Source: Alphaproteobacteria bacterium (GTDB lineage Bacteria; Pseudomonadota; Alphaproteobacteria; JAUHZY01). Taken from it: a DNA stretch of 64,000 bases. Under the pieces are notes generated by a model that saw only the letters and a program-made list of their open reading frames with translations, was not told the DNA's origin and did no database searches. The first letter of the stretch is position 1. The number at the start of each line of letters is the position of its first letter. The DNA lies in assembly GCA_030425825.1 (NCBI GenBank), contig JAUHZY010000001.1, positions 1,150,834 through 1,214,833 of the forward strand, written 5' to 3'. Positions 9,770 through 20,597 of this stretch are shown piece by piece. Position numbers and translations under genes: made by a program.

Positions 9770-9833
9770 CTTTTGCTATAATCCATTTTATCATCGCCCC
9801 TTCACACAGCATTTTATGTTTAACAGGAAGAAA

Positions 9834-11093
9834 ATGGATAAAATCAAAGTCACAGGCGGCACTCCACTTAAAGGACAAATTAGAGTTTCAGGATCAAAGA
9901 ACACTGCTTTGGCGATTATGCCTGTGTGTTTATTAACTGATCAGCCTGTAGAGCTTTCTAACATCCCCAATGTCAGTGATGTTCACACGCTTAACACACT
10001 TTTTCAGCAACACGGTGTTGATGCTTCTTTCAAAGAGGGCGTTGTACACCTACAAGCTTCAGAAATCACAAATACAACAGCACCTTATGACATTGTTTCA
10101 AAAATGCGCGCTTCTTTTTGGGTGCTCGGGCCCTTGCTTGCGCGTATGGGTGAAGCAAAGGTTTCGCTACCTGGTGGAGATGCAATTGGCGCACGTCCTG
10201 TGAATTTTCACCTTAAAGGTCTTGAAGTGCTTGGCGCCGATATTGAACTTGAAAGCGGTTATGTTATTGCCAAAGCACCAAATGGACTAACTGGTGGACG
10301 TATTACCATGCCACATGTTTCAGTCGGTGCGACAATTACGCTGTTAATGGCTGCGACTCTTGCAAAGGGCGAAACTGTTATTGTCAATGCTGCACGCGAA
10401 CCCGATGTTTGCGACCTTGGAGAGTGCCTGATTAAAATGGGCGCAAAAATTGAAGGACTTGGCACAAACATTATCCGCATTCAAGGTGTTGAAAGCTTAA
10501 GCAGTGTTTCTCATCGTATTATTCCTGATCGCATTGAGGCAGGGTCTTATGCGGTTGCAGCAGCAATCAGCGGTGGTGATGTAGAATTGTTGGACGCTGA
10601 CTGTACACATATCGAAACATTTCTCAATTTCTTACGTGCAACAGGTACAGCAGTTGATAAAAGCAGTGATCGCATCCGTATCACAGCACCTGATGGACGC
10701 TTGCAACCTGTCGATATAACAACAGAAGCCTATCCTGGATACCCGACAGACCTACAAGCACAAATGGTCGCTCTTATGACACTTGCAGAAGGCACATCAA
10801 CAATTACCGAAGGTATTTTTGAAAACCGCTTTATGCATGTACCTGAATTAAGGCGCATGGGTGCCAAAATTGACGTTCAAGGAAAAAGCGCGATTATTCA
10901 CGGCGTTGACGAACTGGTTGGTGCCGAAGTTATGTCGACAGATTTACGCGCTTCTGTATGCCTTATTTCTGCAGGCCTTAAAGCAAAAGGTGACACAGTC
11001 GTCAGTCGTGTTTATCACCTTGACCGTGGCTTTGAGAACCTAGAAGAAAAACTTAAAGCTTGTGGCGCCCAGATAGAGCGCCTTAAAAGCTAA
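9834..11093 (+). CDS. murA: UDP-N-acetylglucosamine 1-carboxyvinyltransferase (MurA), Asp variant
   Basis: MurA transfers enolpyruvate from PEP to UDP-GlcNAc, the first committed step of peptidoglycan synthesis. The 419-residue protein shows SGSKNTALAIMP near the start, RASFWVLGPLLARMG, and EAYPGYPTDLQAQ. The key loop reads LPGGDAIGARPV: residue 116 is Asp where most MurA enzymes have the PEP-reactive, fosfomycin-alkylated Cys (Cys115 in E. coli). The Asp form is known from naturally fosfomycin-resistant enzymes such as those of Mycobacterium and Chlamydia. The start at 9834 is preferred over 9816 because AGGA lies 6-7 bases before it. A small unknown gene converges on its end, 2 bases away. 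Confidence 0.96.
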   Translation: MDKIKVTGGTPLKGQIRVSGSKNTALAIMPVCLLTDQPVELSNIPNVSDVHTLNTLFQQHGVDASFKEGVVHLQASEITNTTAPYDIVSKMRASFWVLGPLLARMGEAKVSLPGGDAIGARPVNFHLKGLEVLGADIELESGYVIAKAPNGLTGGRITMPHVSVGATITLLMAATLAKGETVIVNAAREPDVCDLGECLIKMGAKIEGLGTNIIRIQGVESLSSVSHRIIPDRIEAGSYAVAAAISGGDVELLDADCTHIETFLNFLRATGTAVDKSSDRIRITAPDGRLQPVDITTEAYPGYPTDLQAQMVALMTLAEGTSTITEGIFENRFMHVPELRRMGAKIDVQGKSAIIHGVDELVGAEVMSTDLRASVCLISAGLKAKGDTVVSRVYHLDRGFENLEEKLKACGAQIERLKS

Positions 11094-11864: not shown

Positions 11865-12233
11865 TTAGTTCAAGAAGTAGATAATTGCTTGGAACCCAGC
11901 GAGCACAAACAGTCCGCCACAAATAGCAAAAGCCCATTTCCAGTTCCACTTACCAACAGTTGCCATCAAGACCATTCCCAACAAACCAAGACCCGCTAAG
12001 ATATATGTGATTTGTTCAGCATAAACATAGGTTGTACCTGTTCTAGAAGTAACCGTTTCAAGGAAAGTAGAACGAACTTCACCCAGCTCTGCGCCAAACT
12101 CAACTTCACCTGATTTCTCACCTATAAATTTTCGAGGACTTTTAATGTAGTTCGATGGTGGCGTGTCTTGTGCAAACGCAGGGTCTGTTATAATTAAAAA
12201 AGCAGACATCAATAAGATAATTAAATACTTCAT
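11865..12233 (-). CDS. Exported double-helix (pilin-like) protein, copy 1
   Basis: 122 residues. A signal peptide (1-21) ends AFA before QDTPPS. A hydrophilic segment (22-74) follows, then membrane helix 1 (about 75-93, ITYILAGLGLLGMVLMATV), a basic aromatic turn GKWNWKW (94-100), and membrane helix 2 (101-121, ending QAIIYFLN at the C-terminus). The same plan is found in five neighbours. Topology would put both ends outside and the basic turn in the cytoplasm, the arrangement of VirB2/TrbC/TraA pilin precursors; some Icm/Dot small membrane subunits also have a comparable helix pair. That link is inference from architecture. It is the last gene of the six-gene run, 9 bases after the next one. 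Confidence 0.7.
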   Translation of the reverse strand: MKYLIILLMSAFLIITDPAFAQDTPPSNYIKSPRKFIGEKSGEVEFGAELGEVRSTFLETVTSRTGTTYVYAEQITYILAGLGLLGMVLMATVGKWNWKWAFAICGGLFVLAGFQAIIYFLN

Positions 12234-12242
12234 TTCTTTCTC

Positions 12243-12680
12243 CTAACTGAGGAACGCAACCATATACTGGAAGCCTGCCAAAATAGCTAAACCACCAATA
12301 ATTGCCGCAGAATGTTTCCAATTAAAGCGCCCCATAAATGCCATAATAACAAGATATAACATTCCCATTCCTGCAAGAATATAAGTCACGATATAACTTT
12401 GACGTGAAACTTCTTGCATACGATTGTTTGCTGTCACAAGAAAATGATCTGTGCTTGGCGTCGCATTTTCTGGTCTTGTTTCATAAGCTCTTGGGTCATA
12501 ATTATAATCCGTCTTATTCTGAAAGTCTCGATCAGATGTACGTGGATTAAAATGCGGGACAAATGTTTTATCAGGACTCTGTCCAACCCTATCGTAAATA
12601 GGACTGGTACCCGCCTCAACATCTGTAACCGCTGAAACAACTAAAATGACTACCAAGAAAAATACATTTAAATACTTCAT
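12243..12680 (-). CDS. Exported double-helix (pilin-like) protein, copy 2
   Basis: 145 residues with a signal peptide (1-23, ending VEA before GTSPI). A long hydrophilic, Asp/Asn/Pro-rich segment (24-95) precedes helix 1 (98-116, TYILAGMGMLYLVIMAFM), the turn GRFNWKH (117-123) and helix 2 (124-144), ending FQYMVAFLS. That ending is identical to the end of the three-module neighbour upstream, indicating recent duplication or strong constraint. His replaces the final Trp of the turn. The ectodomain differs from all other copies in length and sequence, so diversity is concentrated outside the helix pair. Confidence 0.7.
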   Translation of the reverse strand: MKYLNVFFLVVILVVSAVTDVEAGTSPIYDRVGQSPDKTFVPHFNPRTSDRDFQNKTDYNYDPRAYETRPENATPSTDHFLVTANNRMQEVSRQSYIVTYILAGMGMLYLVIMAFMGRFNWKHSAAIIGGLAILAGFQYMVAFLS

Positions 12681-12687
12681 TTTCTTC

Positions 12688-13602
12688 CTATGATAAAAAC
12701 GCGACCATATACTGGAAACCAGCGATAATAATCAATGCGCCACAAAGAGCCGTAAACCATTTCCACTGGAACTTACCCATAAAGGCCAAGATAACCATCG
12801 CCAACATACCCAGGCCAGAAACAATATAGGTAAAGGTTTCTGCATGACCATAAAAGTCTTGAATACGCTCGTTCGCAAGATCAAAACTGTTTTTCGCAAG
12901 CTGTGCATCATGTAGGTAACTAATCCAATACTGGAATCCACTTACCATCAACAACATACCCGATACCATAAAGAACCATTTCCAGCTAAACCTACCAATA
13001 AAGGCACCCATTGCCATCGCCAACACACCAACACCAGAAACTGTATATGTGAAAACTTCAAACCTCTCAGAAAGATATCCTGCACGCCAAATAACTTCGT
13101 TCCAGAGGCGCTTTGGATCACCCGCTGTGGTTTTATCCCCACCATTAGCACCTGTCCAGTCAGACATATTATCTGCATGCAGCCAACCATCACCAACATG
13201 CCCTGTGGTACCGCTCAAGAATTCGAATGTTCCAATGAAAAACAGGCCAAATGTCAGCATAAGAAGCCACTTCCATTGAAACTTACCAAAGAAAGCCATA
13301 ATCGCCAGCGCAAACACACCAAGCCCCGAAAGAATATAGGCTGTTGTTTTAAAGGACTCTTTCCAATGCTGCAGCATGTTTTTAGCACCCTGCGTTCCCC
13401 TTAAATTACCATGACCTGCGAAATTGGTTTTGTCAGGCAGCCCTACAAGCTGACCAGAAGCCGCATTTTTAGGGTCTTCTTTATACGTTCCTTTTGGCGG
13501 ACGAATGATTGTATCAAACGGAACACCCTGCGCAAGAGCAGGAGCCGTCAGGACAAAAAACGTCGCAAAAATAAGAAACAGACTACTTAAAACTTTACCC
13601 AT
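12688..13602 (-). CDS. Exported protein with three double-helix modules, copy 3
   Basis: 304 residues: signal peptide 1-24 (PALA before QGVPF), then three copies of the module at about 87-129, 184-230 and 257-303. Their turns read GKFQWKW (106-112), GRFSWKW (203-209) and GKFQWKW (276-282). Linkers between modules are hydrophilic, about 45-55 residues for the first and 26 for the second. Module 3 ends GFQYMVAFLS like copy 2. Six membrane helices are predicted after cleavage of the signal. This tandem fusion is unlike known VirB2 pilins, which have one helix pair per chain, and argues either for a pre-joined trimer or for a channel-like role. Confidence 0.72.
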   Translation of the reverse strand: MGKVLSSLFLIFATFFVLTAPALAQGVPFDTIIRPPKGTYKEDPKNAASGQLVGLPDKTNFAGHGNLRGTQGAKNMLQHWKESFKTTAYILSGLGVFALAIMAFFGKFQWKWLLMLTFGLFFIGTFEFLSGTTGHVGDGWLHADNMSDWTGANGGDKTTAGDPKRLWNEVIWRAGYLSERFEVFTYTVSGVGVLAMAMGAFIGRFSWKWFFMVSGMLLMVSGFQYWISYLHDAQLAKNSFDLANERIQDFYGHAETFTYIVSGLGMLAMVILAFMGKFQWKWFTALCGALIIIAGFQYMVAFLS

Positions 13603-13611
13603 TACGCTTTC

Positions 13612-13965
13612 CTAGTTGAGGAAGAATACCAATTGCTGCGCACCAGCAAGAACAAAAAGTCCACCAACCAAGGCGATAAACCATTTCCACTGGAACCTGC
13701 CAAACACAGCCAAAATAACCAAACCAATCACGCCGACACCGGAATAAATATAAGTCATACGTTTAATATAGATATAAGCAGACTCACTTCGCATTTCAGC
13801 TGTTTGTAGGGCTGTCGTGTCGCCCCCTTCACCGAACACATCTACGCGTGGTGGCGTCAGATGGTTGCGTGCTGTTTGCGCCATTGCAGGCGTTACTTGC
13901 AAGAAAAAGAAGGCAGCTATCAAAGTCATCAACACTGCTTTAAGTCTCTTTTTTTGTAACATCAT
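13612..13965 (-). CDS. Exported double-helix (pilin-like) protein, copy 4
   Basis: 117 residues, the most compact copy. The signal peptide (1-29, TPAMA before QTARN) is followed by only about 40 hydrophilic residues, then helix 1 (70-88, MTYIYSGVGVIGLVILAVF), turn GRFQWKW (89-95) and helix 2 (96-116) ending QQLVFFLN. Size, signal peptide and helix spacing are closest of the six to a classical VirB2/TrbC pilin precursor. It sits 9 bases before the three-module gene in the same run. Confidence 0.7.
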   Translation of the reverse strand: MMLQKKRLKAVLMTLIAAFFFLQVTPAMAQTARNHLTPPRVDVFGEGGDTTALQTAEMRSESAYIYIKRMTYIYSGVGVIGLVILAVFGRFQWKWFIALVGGLFVLAGAQQLVFFLN

Positions 13966-13979
13966 GAAACCTCGCTTAA

Positions 13980-14420
13980 TTATTCAAATAAAAAGTCTAT
14001 CAATGCTTGTACTGAACCCAGTAAAAAGACCGCAAACATCCAGCCAAACAGCCAGGACCAACGAAAGCGACCGATAAAAGCTAAAACAGCGATTCCCATC
14101 ATACCAAGCGCAGCAACAGAGTAAACGGCCATACGCATATTCCATGCAGCATCATTTAAATAACCTTCTTTACTGCCTGCTTTAGCAAAAGGCGAAAACA
14201 TCGCACCATTATCTGTAAAGATACCATCACCCGCACTTGGCTCTGAGGCCGTCGAAGAGCTTGAAGAAGTGTTCAATTGCTGTGGATCGCTTGCATTCCA
14301 AGCATCCAGGTTCTCTTTTATATTGTATAGCCCAAGGTCTTCCGTTTGTGCATGTGCAGGAAAAACCCACACAGATAAAACAAAAAAGACGCAAAGAAAC
14401 ACTCTTAATCTATAAGTCAT
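13980..14420 (-). CDS. Exported double-helix (pilin-like) protein, copy 5
   Basis: 146 residues. Signal peptide 1-24 (PAHA before QTEDL). The exported segment (25-97) contains a Ser/Thr-rich stretch (TSSSSSTASEPSAGDG) and is longer than in copy 4. Helix 1 (98-116) is followed by turn GRFRWSW (117-123) and helix 2 (124-145, ending VQALIDFLFE). Its helix 2 resembles copy 6 (LLGxVQALIDxL) more than copies 1-4, so the six fall into two subgroups. The gene starts 3 bases after copy 6 ends. Confidence 0.7.
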   Translation of the reverse strand: MTYRLRVFLCVFFVLSVWVFPAHAQTEDLGLYNIKENLDAWNASDPQQLNTSSSSSTASEPSAGDGIFTDNGAMFSPFAKAGSKEGYLNDAAWNMRMAVYSVAALGMMGIAVLAFIGRFRWSWLFGWMFAVFLLGSVQALIDFLFE

Positions 14421-14423
14421 TTT

Positions 14424-14792
14424 TTATAAGAAATTCCCATAATAAAGCAGATCAATTAATGCTTGAACGCCGCCTAACAAAAAGAGCCCTAATGCCCAAT
14501 AAAACAAGGTGCTCCACTTAAATTTTCCAAAAAAAGCTGCAACAGCAATCGCAATTGCACCAAGCGCAGCAACTGTATAAATCCCTTCACGGACATGACC
14601 ATAAAGATTATTCGCTCTTTTTCTTGCAAAATTGAAGATACGGCTAGCGCCTGTTTGATTGGCAACCTCAGCGCGCGCACTGTTATAGCCAACTGTTGGG
14701 GTCATAAGCATTGTAAAAACGCCCAGAAAACAAAGAAATTTTGAGATATTTTTTATGAATGACGACGGCTCAGAATCCTGCATACTCGACAT
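14424..14792 (-). CDS. Exported double-helix (pilin-like) protein, copy 6
   Basis: 122 residues, the promoter-proximal gene of the run. The N-terminus carries an extra polar leader MSSMQDSEPSSFIKN before the hydrophobic signal core, with a likely cleavage site at NSARA/EVAN (41). The exported segment is short and basic (RIFNFARKRANNLYG). Helix 1 (70-88), turn GKFKWST (89-95) and helix 2 (96-117) follow, and the tail YYGNFL extends beyond the usual end. The ribosome site GGGAG lies about 12 bases before the ATG, so the second Met is another possible start. It faces the HTH regulator gene across 294 bases. Confidence 0.65.
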   Translation of the reverse strand: MSSMQDSEPSSFIKNISKFLCFLGVFTMLMTPTVGYNSARAEVANQTGASRIFNFARKRANNLYGHVREGIYTVAALGAIAIAVAAFFGKFKWSTLFYWALGLFLLGGVQALIDLLYYGNFL

Positions 14793-15086: not shown

Positions 15087-15755
15087 ATGAAAAAAGCCTA
15101 TGATGAACTTCCAAACAGGATTAAGGAATGGCGCAACCGTCGTCGTATGTCCCTTGCTGAACTAGGTGAAATTGTTAACTTGAGCCGTTCTGAAATTAGC
15201 AAGCTTGAAAATGGATCTCGTCGCGTGCGTTCAGACCACCTTTTAAAGCTTTCAAAAGCTTTGCGTGTTCGCCCGGAAGACCTGCTTTCTAAACAGGAAG
15301 CTGAAGAGTTATTAAACCACACAGCAGAAATCGCATCAGAGAACAATTCTCCTACTGCACGTATGTCTATGTCTATGGACCTACCTGTTTGTGGCCAAAT
15401 GACTGAAACAAAATTCACAGTTGATGAAGAAACGCCACAAACGTTCTCTCAACGCCCACCTCAGCTTGATCGTGTTGCTGGCGCATATGCTGTTCACGTA
15501 CCTTCAACTGACCTGGAGCCACATGTACGTGTTGGAACACTTCTTTATGTTAACCCTGTTCTTCCTGCACGCCCAGAAGATTTGGCTGTTGTTCGTTATG
15601 CAAGCGGCAAAAAAGCTGATGTTGTTTATGTTGTTCGTGACAACACAAATGGTTCTCTTGTTGGCAAGAAATATGGCAACGAAGAGCAAACAATTGACCT
15701 TGCAGCAAATGATGTTAAAGCGGTCCACCGTGTTGTGGGTAGCTGGTACTCTTAA
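15087..15755 (+). CDS. XRE-family regulator with degenerate S24 peptidase-like domain
   Basis: 222 residues. Residues 10-65 are a Cro/CI-type helix-turn-helix (MSLAELGEIVNLSRSEISKL). The C-terminal part (about 125-222) follows the S24/LexA-like fold: VPSTDLEPHVRVGTLLYV aligns with the usual VxGxSMxPxxxxGDLxxV, but the position of the nucleophilic Ser is Asp142, so RecA-stimulated self-cleavage is unlikely. It probably binds DNA as a dimer and may respond to something else. Ribosome site AGGAG at 7-8 bases. It is divergent from the six-gene membrane cluster and is followed by a strong terminator. Confidence 0.82.
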   Translation: MKKAYDELPNRIKEWRNRRRMSLAELGEIVNLSRSEISKLENGSRRVRSDHLLKLSKALRVRPEDLLSKQEAEELLNHTAEIASENNSPTARMSMSMDLPVCGQMTETKFTVDEETPQTFSQRPPQLDRVAGAYAVHVPSTDLEPHVRVGTLLYVNPVLPARPEDLAVVRYASGKKADVVYVVRDNTNGSLVGKKYGNEEQTIDLAANDVKAVHRVVGSWYS

Positions 15756-17724: not shown

Positions 17725-19074
17725 TTAAAGTGTGACGCCATTGAAGACGATATTGTAATCTTGGTCTTCTGCAAGCTCACGTAGGTTTGTTGCTGAGACA
17801 TAAGCTTGATTTTCTAAAACAATCATAAACTCTTCGTTGTTATCGATACGAATTTGAACAGCACTTGCCACATTGTCATAGAAAACAGAAATAAAGTCTT
17901 CATCGTATAGGACTGTTGCGTTTCCTGTAATAAATAAAGTTGCAGGGTTATTAATAATAATATCAATCACATCATAGGTTTTGTTAAAATCAGCAACAAT
18001 ATCTTCAGCGCCTGAAGCATTACTAATACCTTCTATCATCCCCATGAATTCTGGGAAATCTTCGTTCGCAGTTACATTCCTCATATCATATTGGAATGCA
18101 AAAACATCTGCGCCTGTGCCGCCAATTAAGGTATCATTTCCTTCCCAGCCAACAAGCGTATCATCACCTTCGCTACCTGATATTTCATCATCTCCCTTAC
18201 CACCACGAATATAATCCGCATCCAGGCCGCCATCAATTGTATCATCACCAAGATTGCCTTGAATACTATCATCATTCATGCCGCCTTGAATAAAATCGCC
18301 GTCTTTACCACCTAAAATCGTATCGTCGCCTTCACCACCATATAAGGTATCACCTTCTTGGTTTCCCTGCAGAAAATCATCTCCACCGCTTCCATAAATT
18401 TGATCGCTGCCATCACCGCCGTAAAGAACATCATTACTATCTCCACCACGAAGAGAGTCATCTCCTAAATCGCCGTATATCAGGTCTTCACCACTATCTC
18501 CACGAATCGTGTCATCGCCTTTGCCACCTCTTAATGTTGAGTTCCCAAATCCACCAATAATACTGTCATTATCTGCATTACCATTGACAAGGTTGTCACC
18601 ACTGTCACCAAAAATAGTGTCATTACCCATCCCGCCAAAAATGGTATCATTGCCATCGCTACCCTCCAGGTCATCGTCTCCTTTATTCCCTTGAATAAAG
18701 TCATCACCTTGACCACCATGCAAAGCGTCATTTCCACTTAGACCGGAGAGCCTATCATCAGCTAATGACCCAAACATATAATTCCCAACATCATCTTCTG
18801 ACGCTGTTGAGTTATCGCCAATAATAAGCTGACTGCCATCATCAAAACGAATATTGCCGTTACCTTGGCTATCAACAATTTGTGTTATATCGAGTGTTGG
18901 CACGATGAAAGCGCTTAAATGCGGCGCCTTAAAGAAGGTTCCACCATTAGCAAGGCCAATAACAGAGACTTCTGCGGCGCTAACACCAGTAAATACCAGA
19001 CGATCTGCCTCAGGATTAAAACCTTTAACGATCGAAGGATTTGCTGCGACATCCTGTGCTTTAAAAATTGTCAT
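17725..19074 (-). CDS. RTX calcium-binding repeat protein 1
   Basis: 449 residues. An N-terminal region (1-105) shared with its neighbour precedes about 22 glycine/aspartate nonapeptides (roughly 105-310), for example GGKGDDTIRGDSGEDLIYG, which fold into a Ca2+-binding parallel beta roll. The last 130 residues are not repetitive and end in a short hydrophobic stretch (YNIVFNGVTL), as in uncleaved C-terminal signals of type I secretion. No type I transporter genes are in the window. It lacks any toxin or enzyme domain I can see. It sits 68 bases downstream of the second RTX gene and looks like a tandem duplicate. Confidence 0.88.
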   Translation of the reverse strand: MTIFKAQDVAANPSIVKGFNPEADRLVFTGVSAAEVSVIGLANGGTFFKAPHLSAFIVPTLDITQIVDSQGNGNIRFDDGSQLIIGDNSTASEDDVGNYMFGSLADDRLSGLSGNDALHGGQGDDFIQGNKGDDDLEGSDGNDTIFGGMGNDTIFGDSGDNLVNGNADNDSIIGGFGNSTLRGGKGDDTIRGDSGEDLIYGDLGDDSLRGGDSNDVLYGGDGSDQIYGSGGDDFLQGNQEGDTLYGGEGDDTILGGKDGDFIQGGMNDDSIQGNLGDDTIDGGLDADYIRGGKGDDEISGSEGDDTLVGWEGNDTLIGGTGADVFAFQYDMRNVTANEDFPEFMGMIEGISNASGAEDIVADFNKTYDVIDIIINNPATLFITGNATVLYDEDFISVFYDNVASAVQIRIDNNEEFMIVLENQAYVSATNLRELAEDQDYNIVFNGVTL

Positions 19075-19142: not shown

Positions 19143-20597
19143 TTAAATAAGCTGCAACGTTATATCGTAATTTGCAAGCGTTGACAGTTCGTCCAAACTA
19201 CTTGCTGAAGCGATGCCTAGACTTTGAATAATAATTTTCTGTGTCTCCAAAGAACCATTCAAATAAATCTCAAGATCTGACCCATTTTGTGTCACATCTA
19301 TTAACCCCGCAGAAAGTGTCGCAGGTGCTGTCGCTGAAAAAAGATGTGTTGTATCAGATAGCTGAATAATAATTGTATCAAAGTCAGCATCAAAATCAGA
19401 AACATAGTCTATACCATCACCATCCAGAGACCCCATCTGATCCGCACTTTGGTTGGCATCAACAGCGCTAGCAGAATAAGAAAAGGTAAATGTGTCTTCG
19501 CCATCACCACCCAACAATGTGTCATTACCATTGCCGCCTTCAAGCGCGTCATTGCCGTCGCCACCATCAATCGTGTCATTGCCGTCGCCGCCTAAAAGCG
19601 TATCTTCATTATTACCGCCATTGACAAGGTCATCACCAGAAGCGCCGTAAATCAGATCATCACCTTCGCCACCTTCTATACTGTCATTACCGCTACCACC
19701 ATCAAGACTGTCATTACCGAATCCACCTTCTAGCGTATCTGCGCCGTTAGATCCGAAAACGCTGTCATTGCCAAGGTTACCATTAATAAAATCATCGCCA
19801 TCATCGCCAACAGCAACATCATTTCCCTTGCCACCAAAAACCGTATCATTACCATTGCCACCGTTCAGCGTATCGTTGCCTTGGTTTCCCTGCAGAAAGT
19901 CATTTCCACTCTCACCATCGGCCTGATCTGCACCATCACCACCATATAAAAAATCGTTCCCATCACCGCCATCTAGAATATCATCGCCAAGATCACCGTT
20001 AATGATGTCATTTGCACTACCACCATCAACTGCATCATTCCCTTTACCGCCTCGAATATTATCATCGCCATCATCGCCCTTGACGATATCGTCTCCTTTA
20101 TTTCCATTCATATTATCATTTCCAGCACCGCCAGAAAGCGAGTCAGCACCCTGCCCGCCACGCAATACATCGCTGCCAAGCCCCCCAACAATCGTGTCAT
20201 CGCCTTGATTCCCATGAATAAAATCATCACCAGCCAAGCCATCTAAGCTGTCATTTCCTTCTAGGCCTGACAGCCGGTCTGCACGAACACTGCCCGTCAA
20301 TGCGTTGGCAGAAGCATCCAATGATGAAGCTGTTGTACCGTCGCCTACAAGAAGTAAGCTTAAATCAGAAAATTCCATGTTCCCATTCAGGCCATTGGAG
20401 GTCATTTTCTCAATAGGCAAGGTCGCCACAAAAAGGCTTCCAACACCCGCAACAGAAATAATAGAACCTGTTGAAAGTGCAGAAACAGAGACTTGTGACG
20501 CAGAAATGCCAGAAAAAAATAATGTATCAGAATCAGGATCAAAACTTGAGACCAAAGATGGCCGCGCAACAGCTCCTGAAAACAGATAAATAGACAT
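19143..20597 (-). CDS. RTX calcium-binding repeat protein 2
   Basis: 484 residues, paralogous to the next gene downstream: the same N-terminal pattern (PSLVSSFDPDSDTLFFSG against PSIVKGFNPEADRLVFTG), then about 30 GGxGxDxUx nonapeptides (roughly 115-385) and a C-terminal region ending NYDITLQLI. Within the repeats, Phe-containing units such as DFIHGN, DFLQGN and DFINGN recur at similar places in both proteins. The protein is very acidic, as usual for RTX proteins that fold only outside the cell in calcium. It starts 10 bases after the LOG-family gene ends. Likely exported by a type I system encoded elsewhere; role may be surface layer or adhesion (inference). Confidence 0.88.
   Translation of the reverse strand: MSIYLFSGAVARPSLVSSFDPDSDTLFFSGISASQVSVSALSTGSIISVAGVGSLFVATLPIEKMTSNGLNGNMEFSDLSLLLVGDGTTASSLDASANALTGSVRADRLSGLEGNDSLDGLAGDDFIHGNQGDDTIVGGLGSDVLRGGQGADSLSGGAGNDNMNGNKGDDIVKGDDGDDNIRGGKGNDAVDGGSANDIINGDLGDDILDGGDGNDFLYGGDGADQADGESGNDFLQGNQGNDTLNGGNGNDTVFGGKGNDVAVGDDGDDFINGNLGNDSVFGSNGADTLEGGFGNDSLDGGSGNDSIEGGEGDDLIYGASGDDLVNGGNNEDTLLGGDGNDTIDGGDGNDALEGGNGNDTLLGGDGEDTFTFSYSASAVDANQSADQMGSLDGDGIDYVSDFDADFDTIIIQLSDTTHLFSATAPATLSAGLIDVTQNGSDLEIYLNGSLETQKIIIQSLGIASASSLDELSTLANYDITLQLI

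What the first reader, a model, noticed from the sequence alone, without database searches (positions are those of the whole stretch)
11865..14792. Six-gene tandem family of exported double-helix (pilin-like) proteins, one with three fused modules
Six adjacent minus-strand genes, spaced 3-14 bases apart, all encode a signal peptide with an AxA site, a variable exported segment, and a helix pair joined by G[KR][FW]xW[KS], ending at the C-terminus. The gene at 12688-13602 holds three pairs, so there are eight modules in all. Exported parts differ while the helix pairs are kept. Architecture fits VirB2/TrbC pilin precursors or small Icm/Dot subunits, but no type IV secretion gene is nearby and a three-module chain is not known to me from either. 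It could be a multi-subunit pilus, a channel, or a new envelope complex.
Basis: partly seen in the sequence, partly recalled or inferred. Interest (0 to 1): 0.8.

Follow-up and report, generated by a model that had tools for sequence, protein, structure and literature searches.

The report
Fused and tandem VirB2-type secretion pilins
The six genes encode VirB2-type pilins, the small membrane proteins that build the pilus or channel of a type IV secretion machine, here duplicated into a large family whose outer parts differ and with one gene that joins three pilin units in a single chain.

Summary
Six minus-strand genes (11865-14792, gaps 3-14 bp) carry eight copies of a two-helix module, three of them in the 304-aa protein. 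The modules are homologous to each other; the exported segments are not. The genome holds five more such genes at three other loci: 11 genes and 13 modules in all.

They are VirB2/TrbC pilins. The triple protein passes the Pfam TrbC/VirB2 cut-off, and 32 of 35 modules hit that family. In alphaproteobacterial relatives the same module is encoded directly upstream of virB3-virB4, the canonical virB2 slot, and co-occurs with that VirB4 clade. The genome has a dispersed chromosomal type IV system (VirB3, B4, B6, B8, B9, B10, B11, D4) whose virB3-virB4 operon has no virB2 of its own. The window cluster keeps neighbours seen beside virB2-virB3-virB4 elsewhere.

Tandem variable VirB2 arrays are already known (Anaplasma, Ehrlichia, Bartonella, Patescibacteria). 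Chains of two or three fused pilin units I did not find described. They recur in other uncultured Alphaproteobacteria, and the triple fusion probably arose independently in the window lineage and in a Holosporaceae genome. Verdict: a new variant of a known kind. Heteropolymer assembly, surface display and a role in effector delivery are inferred.

The parts
14424..14792 (-). pilin gene 1 (122 aa): signal peptide (ARA), short exported segment, one VirB2-type module
   Evidence: (TrbC E 7.9e-6, 26.5 bits, just under the cut-off)
13980..14420 (-). pilin gene 2 (146 aa): signal peptide (AHA), 62-aa exported segment, one module
   Evidence: (TrbC E 6.3e-4)
13612..13965 (-). pilin gene 3 (117 aa): signal peptide (AMA), one module; AlphaFold2 H52-88 / H93-116
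   Evidence: (TrbC E 1.6e-5)
12688..13602 (-). pilin gene 4 (304 aa): signal peptide and three fused VirB2-type modules (about 13398-13207, 13116-12904 and 12891-12691)
   Evidence: (TrbC E 7.4e-8, above cut-off)
12243..12680 (-). pilin gene 5 (145 aa): signal peptide (VEA), 61-aa exported segment, one module
   Evidence: (56% identical to the third module of gene 4)
11865..12233 (-). pilin gene 6 (122 aa): signal peptide (AFA), exported segment, one module
   Evidence: (TrbC E 0.0021)
15087..15755 (+). divergent HTH (Cro/C1-type) regulator with a weak S24-like C-terminus; homologue is divergent from virB2-virB3-virB4 in a relative (45% over 219 aa)
9816..11093 (+). murA, convergent downstream flank; homologues lie convergent downstream of virB2-virB3-virB4 in L090 and L095 (50%), which suggests an ancestral virB slot. 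Flank only, not a part of the machine

Best explanation
The cluster is a lineage-specific expansion of VirB2/TrbC-family pilins serving the chromosomal, dispersed P-type type IV secretion system of this alphaproteobacterium. SHOWN BY SEQUENCE: family membership, the virB2 position in relatives, the rest of the machine in the same genome, and the triple fusion. INFERRED: each product is exported by Sec and its signal peptide removed. The mature protein sits in the inner membrane as a helix hairpin with the basic G[KR][FW]xW[KS] loop on the cytoplasmic side and the variable segment and C-terminus in the periplasm. VirB4 then extracts the pilins into a mixed (heteropolymeric) pilus or channel. 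In it the conserved hairpins pack as the wall, the basic loop lines the lumen, and the variable N-terminal segments are displayed outside. The 304-aa protein contributes three covalently joined protomers at once. Because N- and C-termini of such pilins lie together on the outside, head-to-tail fusion is topologically allowed. No PF03432 relaxase was found and a VirD4 homologue is present, so protein delivery on contact is a more likely role than conjugation.
For: PF04956 hits. BLASTP of all three modules of the 304-aa protein to an annotated TrbC/VirB2 protein encoded next to a VirB3-family gene on a Microvirga plasmid: E 9e-11, 2e-9 and 9e-8. In relatives the module gene lies directly before virB3-virB4. 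All 52 module hits in 80 VirB4 loci lie upstream of VirB4 on its strand. Co-occurrence: all 10 relatives with modules fall among the 11 of 57 with this VirB4 clade, p = 2.5e-10. Own machine: VirB3-VirB4-VirB8-VirB9 on C5 and VirB10-VirB11-VirD4 at one end of C2; VirB6 at C2:1558302-1559354. Own VirB4 is 48-49% identical to VirB4s that sit beside modules, but only about 22% to the genome's mobile-element VirB4s. The own virB3-virB4 operon has no virB2 before it; lon starts about 115 bp away on the other strand. Synteny of regulator, murA and fabI-aroC. Predicted helix - short turn - helix per module. Known pili: basic loop faces the lumen (PMC12037004); [quoted passage not shown]
Against: Five of the six window proteins score below the Pfam cut-off individually; NCBIfam gives no name. 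No sequence match to solved VirB2-type pilins and no Foldseek hit in the PDB, though a short hairpin model is a weak probe. The four pilin loci are not next to the T4SS genes in this genome, so the link is by homology, co-occurrence and synteny with relatives. The closest VirB4 by match score (L068 genome) has no module anywhere. No expression, localisation or pilus data. The secretin-domain lipoprotein and the lipobox-bearing VirB10 make the outer part of this machine unusual.
Confidence: 0.82

Rival explanations
1. The proteins are VirB2 homologues, but the multi-module one is not a pilus subunit. It acts as a fixed platform or adaptor in the inner membrane, like VirB6, possibly an intermediate between VirB2 and VirB6.
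For: Six transmembrane helices in one chain. A published comparison reports that the N-terminal part of archaeal CedA (VirB6-like) is homologous to nearly the whole CedA1 pilin, with a weaker similar signal for VirB2/VirB6 (PMC9905601). PF04610 alone finds no VirB6 for the chromosomal system.
Against: A profile of relatives' VirB6 proteins finds a 741-761-aa VirB6 in this genome. The genome with the other triple fusion (G060) has four VirB6-type hits. So the triple protein does not replace VirB6. Its modules keep the same loop motif and length as the single pilins.
Confidence: 0.12
2. The array is a reservoir for variation: only one or a few pilins are made at a time, and the different exported segments change what the surface structure looks like to a host, prey or phage.
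For: Exported segments are unalignable while modules are conserved. Anaplasma phagocytophilum has 8-15 virB2 copies with hypervariable regions (PMC3556328), and variable Trw pilins are proposed for Bartonella (PMC12857230).
Against: Six intact genes 3-14 bp apart look like one co-expressed operon. Best module pairs are only moderately alike, and no silent cassettes or promoter inversion were looked for or seen. In Patescibacteria a whole six-pilin array is reported essential (PMC12857230), which points to joint use.
Confidence: 0.25
3. The pilins belong to the conjugative or mobile-element T4SSs in the same genome (contigs C11, C6, C8) rather than to the chromosomal system.
For: Those systems are complete enough to need pilins.
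Against: C11 has its own TrbC-like pilin frame between its virB11-like and virB3-like genes, and C6/C8 carry a TraA-like ORF of about 100 aa. Their VirB4s are only about 22% identical to the VirB4 clade that travels with the modules.
Confidence: 0.04
4. Small Icm/Dot subunits or an unrelated membrane complex.
For: General architecture only.
Against: No Icm/Dot family hit; virB2 gene order and P-type components.
Confidence: 0.02

Closest known systems
VirB2/TrbC pilin family (PF04956; Agrobacterium VirB2, RP4 TrbC, TraA/TrhA pilins)
   Same: Signal peptide, two helices joined by a short basic loop, gene directly before virB3-virB4 in relatives, presence of a matching T4SS.
   Different: Larger and unalignable exported segments before the first helix; 11 genes at four loci away from virB3-virB4; three modules in one chain.
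virB2 paralogue arrays of Anaplasma phagocytophilum (8-15 copies, PMC3556328) and Ehrlichia (4-5, PMC7789307)
   Same: Tandem, divergent virB2 copies in a dispersed T4SS of an alphaproteobacterium; variation concentrated in exposed parts.
   Different: Those are described as single-module proteins of about 120 aa; no fused chains are described in the passages read.
VirB2 arrays of Patescibacteria (441 arrays of 2-11 genes, PMC12102498; the six-pilin array essential in Southlakia epibionticum, cited in PMC12857230)
   Same: Six adjacent, sequence-divergent VirB2-like genes; average identity within arrays about 25%.
   Different: Those belong to a monoderm-type (MPF-FATA-like) T4SS; here the machine is the diderm VirB type with VirB9, VirB10, VirB11 and VirD4. 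Fusions are not reported in the passages read.
Multi-module proteins found here in other Alphaproteobacteria MAGs (L070 three modules; L073, L074, L088, L089, L147 two modules)
   Same: Signal peptide and two or three VirB2 modules in one chain, encoded upstream of virB3-virB4.
   Different: There the genes are still linked to virB3-virB4; trees suggest the triple fusion of L070 arose separately from that in the window.

Membership tests
VirB2/TrbC pilin (PF04956) | Match to the family profile | tested here: met
   304-aa protein E 7.4e-8, 32.9 bits against cut-off 27.9; 32 of 35 modules from window and relatives at E below 0.01. Five single-module window proteins are under the cut-off on their own.
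VirB2/TrbC pilin (PF04956) | Signal peptide and two hydrophobic helices joined by a short basic loop | tested here: met
   Hydropathy, AlphaFold2 secondary structure, loop motif in 8 of 8 modules. Signal peptides judged by eye, not by a dedicated predictor.
VirB2/TrbC pilin (PF04956) | Gene position directly before virB3-virB4 | tested here: met
   Met in relatives. In this genome the genes have moved away, but neighbours of the virB slot remain.
VirB2/TrbC pilin (PF04956) | A cognate T4SS in the same genome | tested here: met
   VirB3, B4, B8, B9, B10, B11, D4 and VirB6.
VirB2/TrbC pilin (PF04956) | Structural similarity to solved VirB2-type pilins | tested here: inconclusive
   No PDB match by profile or Foldseek; small helical hairpins are hard to match.
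VirB2/TrbC pilin (PF04956) | Assembly into a pilus with phospholipid | not testable with these tools
   Needs purification and cryo-EM.
Rickettsiales rvh T4SS | Dispersed P-type T4SS with duplicated VirB2 and enlarged VirB6, no VirB5 | tested here: inconclusive
   Dispersed genes, many VirB2, one large VirB6, relatives with up to four VirB6-type hits. Duplicated VirB4/B8/B9 and VirB7 were not searched for systematically; secretin lipoprotein and lipobox VirB10 are extra. Not filed as rvh.
Icm/Dot small subunits | Match to an Icm/Dot profile | tested here: not met
   None in Pfam or NCBIfam scans.

The most novel reading that the evidence does not exclude
Covalently fused VirB2 protomers (two or three per chain) are built into the pilus or channel wall of a T4SS together with several single pilins. 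The machine would then be an ordered or mixed heteropolymer with displayed, lineage-specific decorations, a pilin arrangement not described so far, and one that arose more than once.
Probability: 0.4. Interest if true: 0.65.

Novelty: new variant of a known kind. Interest (0 to 1): 0.48.

Why it matters
T4SS pili whose structures I read about are homopolymers of one small pilin. Natural chains of two or three pilins, found in several uncultured Alphaproteobacteria, would test whether such filaments can be heteropolymers and whether subunit order or stoichiometry is fixed. They also bear on how VirB2 and multi-spanning VirB6 relate. The case further shows that large virB2 expansions are not confined to Anaplasmataceae, Bartonella and Patescibacteria.

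Tried and rejected
VirB6 replacement by the triple protein: considered because PF04610 found no chromosomal VirB6, rejected after a profile of relatives' VirB6 found one and relatives with fused pilins proved to have VirB6.

Mobile-element T4SS as owner: rejected.

Icm/Dot: no hits.

Fold comparison: no PDB match, not informative for a hairpin.

Alignment-based search of genome contigs with the modules failed because no stretch was conserved enough; the single-protein scan found no relative; the VirB4 scan worked.

PF03432 relaxase search: none found, but other relaxase families were not searched.

Promoter and terminator scans: 13 promoter-like sites against 8.4 expected, 4 terminator-like against 4.0; not informative.

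Alignments A1 and A4 held one mistyped residue (first residue of one module, A for G); harmless for the searches and corrected in A6.
Full report
OBSERVATION. Each starts with a signal peptide (AxA in five; VEA in 12243-12680), continues with an exported segment of variable length, and ends with a helix pair joined by G[KR][FW]xW[KS]. The 304-aa product holds three such pairs. Among the 11 paralogues found in the genome, module pairs score a median 19.3 sd above shuffled sequence (minimum 8.3). Exported segments score a median 0.0 (maximum 3.1) and are in practice unrelated.

GENOME-WIDE. A six-frame search of the host genome (1.95 Mb, 11 contigs, completeness 99%) finds 13 modules in 11 genes: eight in the window, two genes on L010, two on L011 and one on L012. 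The class is Alphaproteobacteria: relatives marked 'same class' are the named MAGs L147, L071, L072 and L082.

FAMILY. The triple protein passes the Pfam cut-off for TrbC/VirB2 pilins (PF04956, E 7.4e-8); the others score 8e-6 to 0.04, under the cut-off. With modules from relatives, 32 of 35 match PF04956 at E below 0.01. The only plasmid hit of the triple protein is an annotated TrbC/VirB2 protein of Microvirga encoded just before a VirB3-family gene. Pairwise BLASTP matches all three modules to it (E 9e-11, 2e-9, 9e-8). AlphaFold2 gives every module a helix of 36-40 residues, a short turn and a helix of 23-27 residues, the plan of VirB2-type pilins. Structure searches were uninformative.

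GENE POSITION. In most relatives with a module (G002, G010, G014, G019, G021, G032, G038, G050) the module gene lies directly before a VirB3-like gene and virB4; in G047 it lies before virB4. A VirB4 scan returned 80 loci. In these, 52 module hits were found, and every one lies upstream of virB4 on the same strand. Across 57 other genomes, the 10 with modules all fall among the 11 with this VirB4 clade (hypergeometric p = 2.5e-10).

THE MACHINE IN THIS GENOME. Contig C5 carries VirB3 (weak profile match), VirB4, VirB8, VirB9 (CagX) and a secretin-domain protein; one end of C2 carries VirB10, VirB11 and VirD4. VirB6 was missed by PF04610 but found with a profile of relatives' VirB6 at C2:1558302-1559354 (E 2.7e-24; ORF of 741 aa in L173). 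The virB3-virB4 operon has no virB2; the divergent lon gene starts about 115 bp upstream. The own VirB4 is 48-49% identical to VirB4s next to modules and only about 22% to the mobile-element VirB4s on C11 and C8. The C11 system has its own TrbC-like frame. No PF03432 relaxase was found.

SYNTENY. The regulator divergent from the window cluster (15087-15755) is 45% identical over 219 aa to a regulator divergent from virB2-virB3-virB4 in G032. murA, convergent downstream in the window, lies convergent downstream of virB2-virB3-virB4 in L090 and L095. The L010 pilin pair follows fabI-aroC, and in L074 fabI-aroC is followed by a pilin array and virB3-virB4 (62% and 64%). The simplest reading, an inference, is that pilin arrays stayed at old virB sites while virB3-virB4 moved, or the reverse.

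FUSIONS. L070 (uncultured Holosporaceae MAG) encodes a 327-aa protein with a signal peptide and three modules, followed by single-module frames, virB3 and virB4; it also passes PF04956 (E 1.9e-8). Two-module proteins occur in L073, L074, L088, L089 and L147. In a module tree all own modules fall on one side of a branch, and so do all L070 modules. The third module of each triple protein groups with a single-module gene from its own array (support moderate). The two-module proteins of L147 and L074 pair module by module, so that fusion is shared. Hence fusions probably arose several times. The tree rests on 74 columns and many branches are weak.

MECHANISM. Shown: homology, gene order, co-occurrence, a nearly complete machine, the fusions. 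Inferred: in solved T4SS pili the loop between the two main helices is basic and faces the lumen (H-pilus, PMC12037004), and Gly1 and Asp69, joined by cyclisation, are exposed on the surface (PMC13031515 abstract). Transferred here, the basic G[KR][FW]xW[KS] loop would line the lumen, the variable segments would be displayed outside, and fusion through the termini would be possible. VirB2 pilins are needed for most Gram-negative T4SSs even where no pilus is seen (PMC12857230), so a channel role alone is also possible.

KNOWN AND NEW. Tandem, divergent virB2 arrays are established: 8-15 copies in Anaplasma phagocytophilum (PMC3556328), 4-5 in Ehrlichia (PMC7789307), variable copies in Bartonella Trw (PMC12857230), 441 arrays of 2-11 genes in Patescibacteria (PMC12102498). 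I found no description of fused VirB2 modules in the held literature, which is incomplete. The finding is therefore a new variant of a known kind: a known pilin family, strongly expanded, in a machine related to known ones, with natural multi-pilin chains as the new element.

LIMITS. Uncultured organism; no expression or imaging data. The link between pilins and machine in this genome is by homology, co-occurrence and synteny. Individual single-module proteins are under the Pfam cut-off. The closest VirB4 by match score comes from a genome without modules (L068), so the pairing is not absolute.

Noticed in passing
L020:12587-14326 (own C2 end): VirB10 homologue (579 aa) begins with a lipobox-like signal (FVFVAAC) and a DUF1573/Ig-like region and shows only this one N-terminal hydrophobic segment; usual VirB10 is anchored in the inner membrane.
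   Followed up: partly
L021:946-2346 (own C5); counterpart L055:99-1346: Secretin-domain (PF00263) lipoprotein encoded directly after virB9; a weakly similar lipoprotein sits beside virB9 in G010 (E 2.3e-8 over residues 90-244). A secretin-like part in a VirB-type T4SS would be unusual.
   Followed up: partly
L010, L011, L012 pilin genes: The exported segments of four of the five pilins outside the window carry two cysteines each (possible disulphide); none in the window proteins do.
   Followed up: no
L058:2454-5675 (G047), L059:3972-5684 (G032), L063:5997-7325 (G031): A VirB2-like module is the C-terminal part of long exported proteins: coiled-coil-like (1073 aa), YD-like repeats (570 aa) and Pro/Gly-rich (442 aa). 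Possibly decorated pilins or pilus-tip proteins.
   Followed up: no
window 17725-19074 and 19143-20597: Two adjacent minus-strand proteins with hemolysin-type (RTX-like) calcium-binding repeats; a larger one (1352 aa) lies at L012:815-4873.
   Followed up: no
L022 (C6) and L023 (C8): Two near-duplicate F-type Tra clusters (TraA/L/E/K/B-like order) on small contigs, plus a VirB-type cluster with transposase-like genes on C11 (L019): mobile-element T4SSs or binning carry-over.
   Followed up: partly
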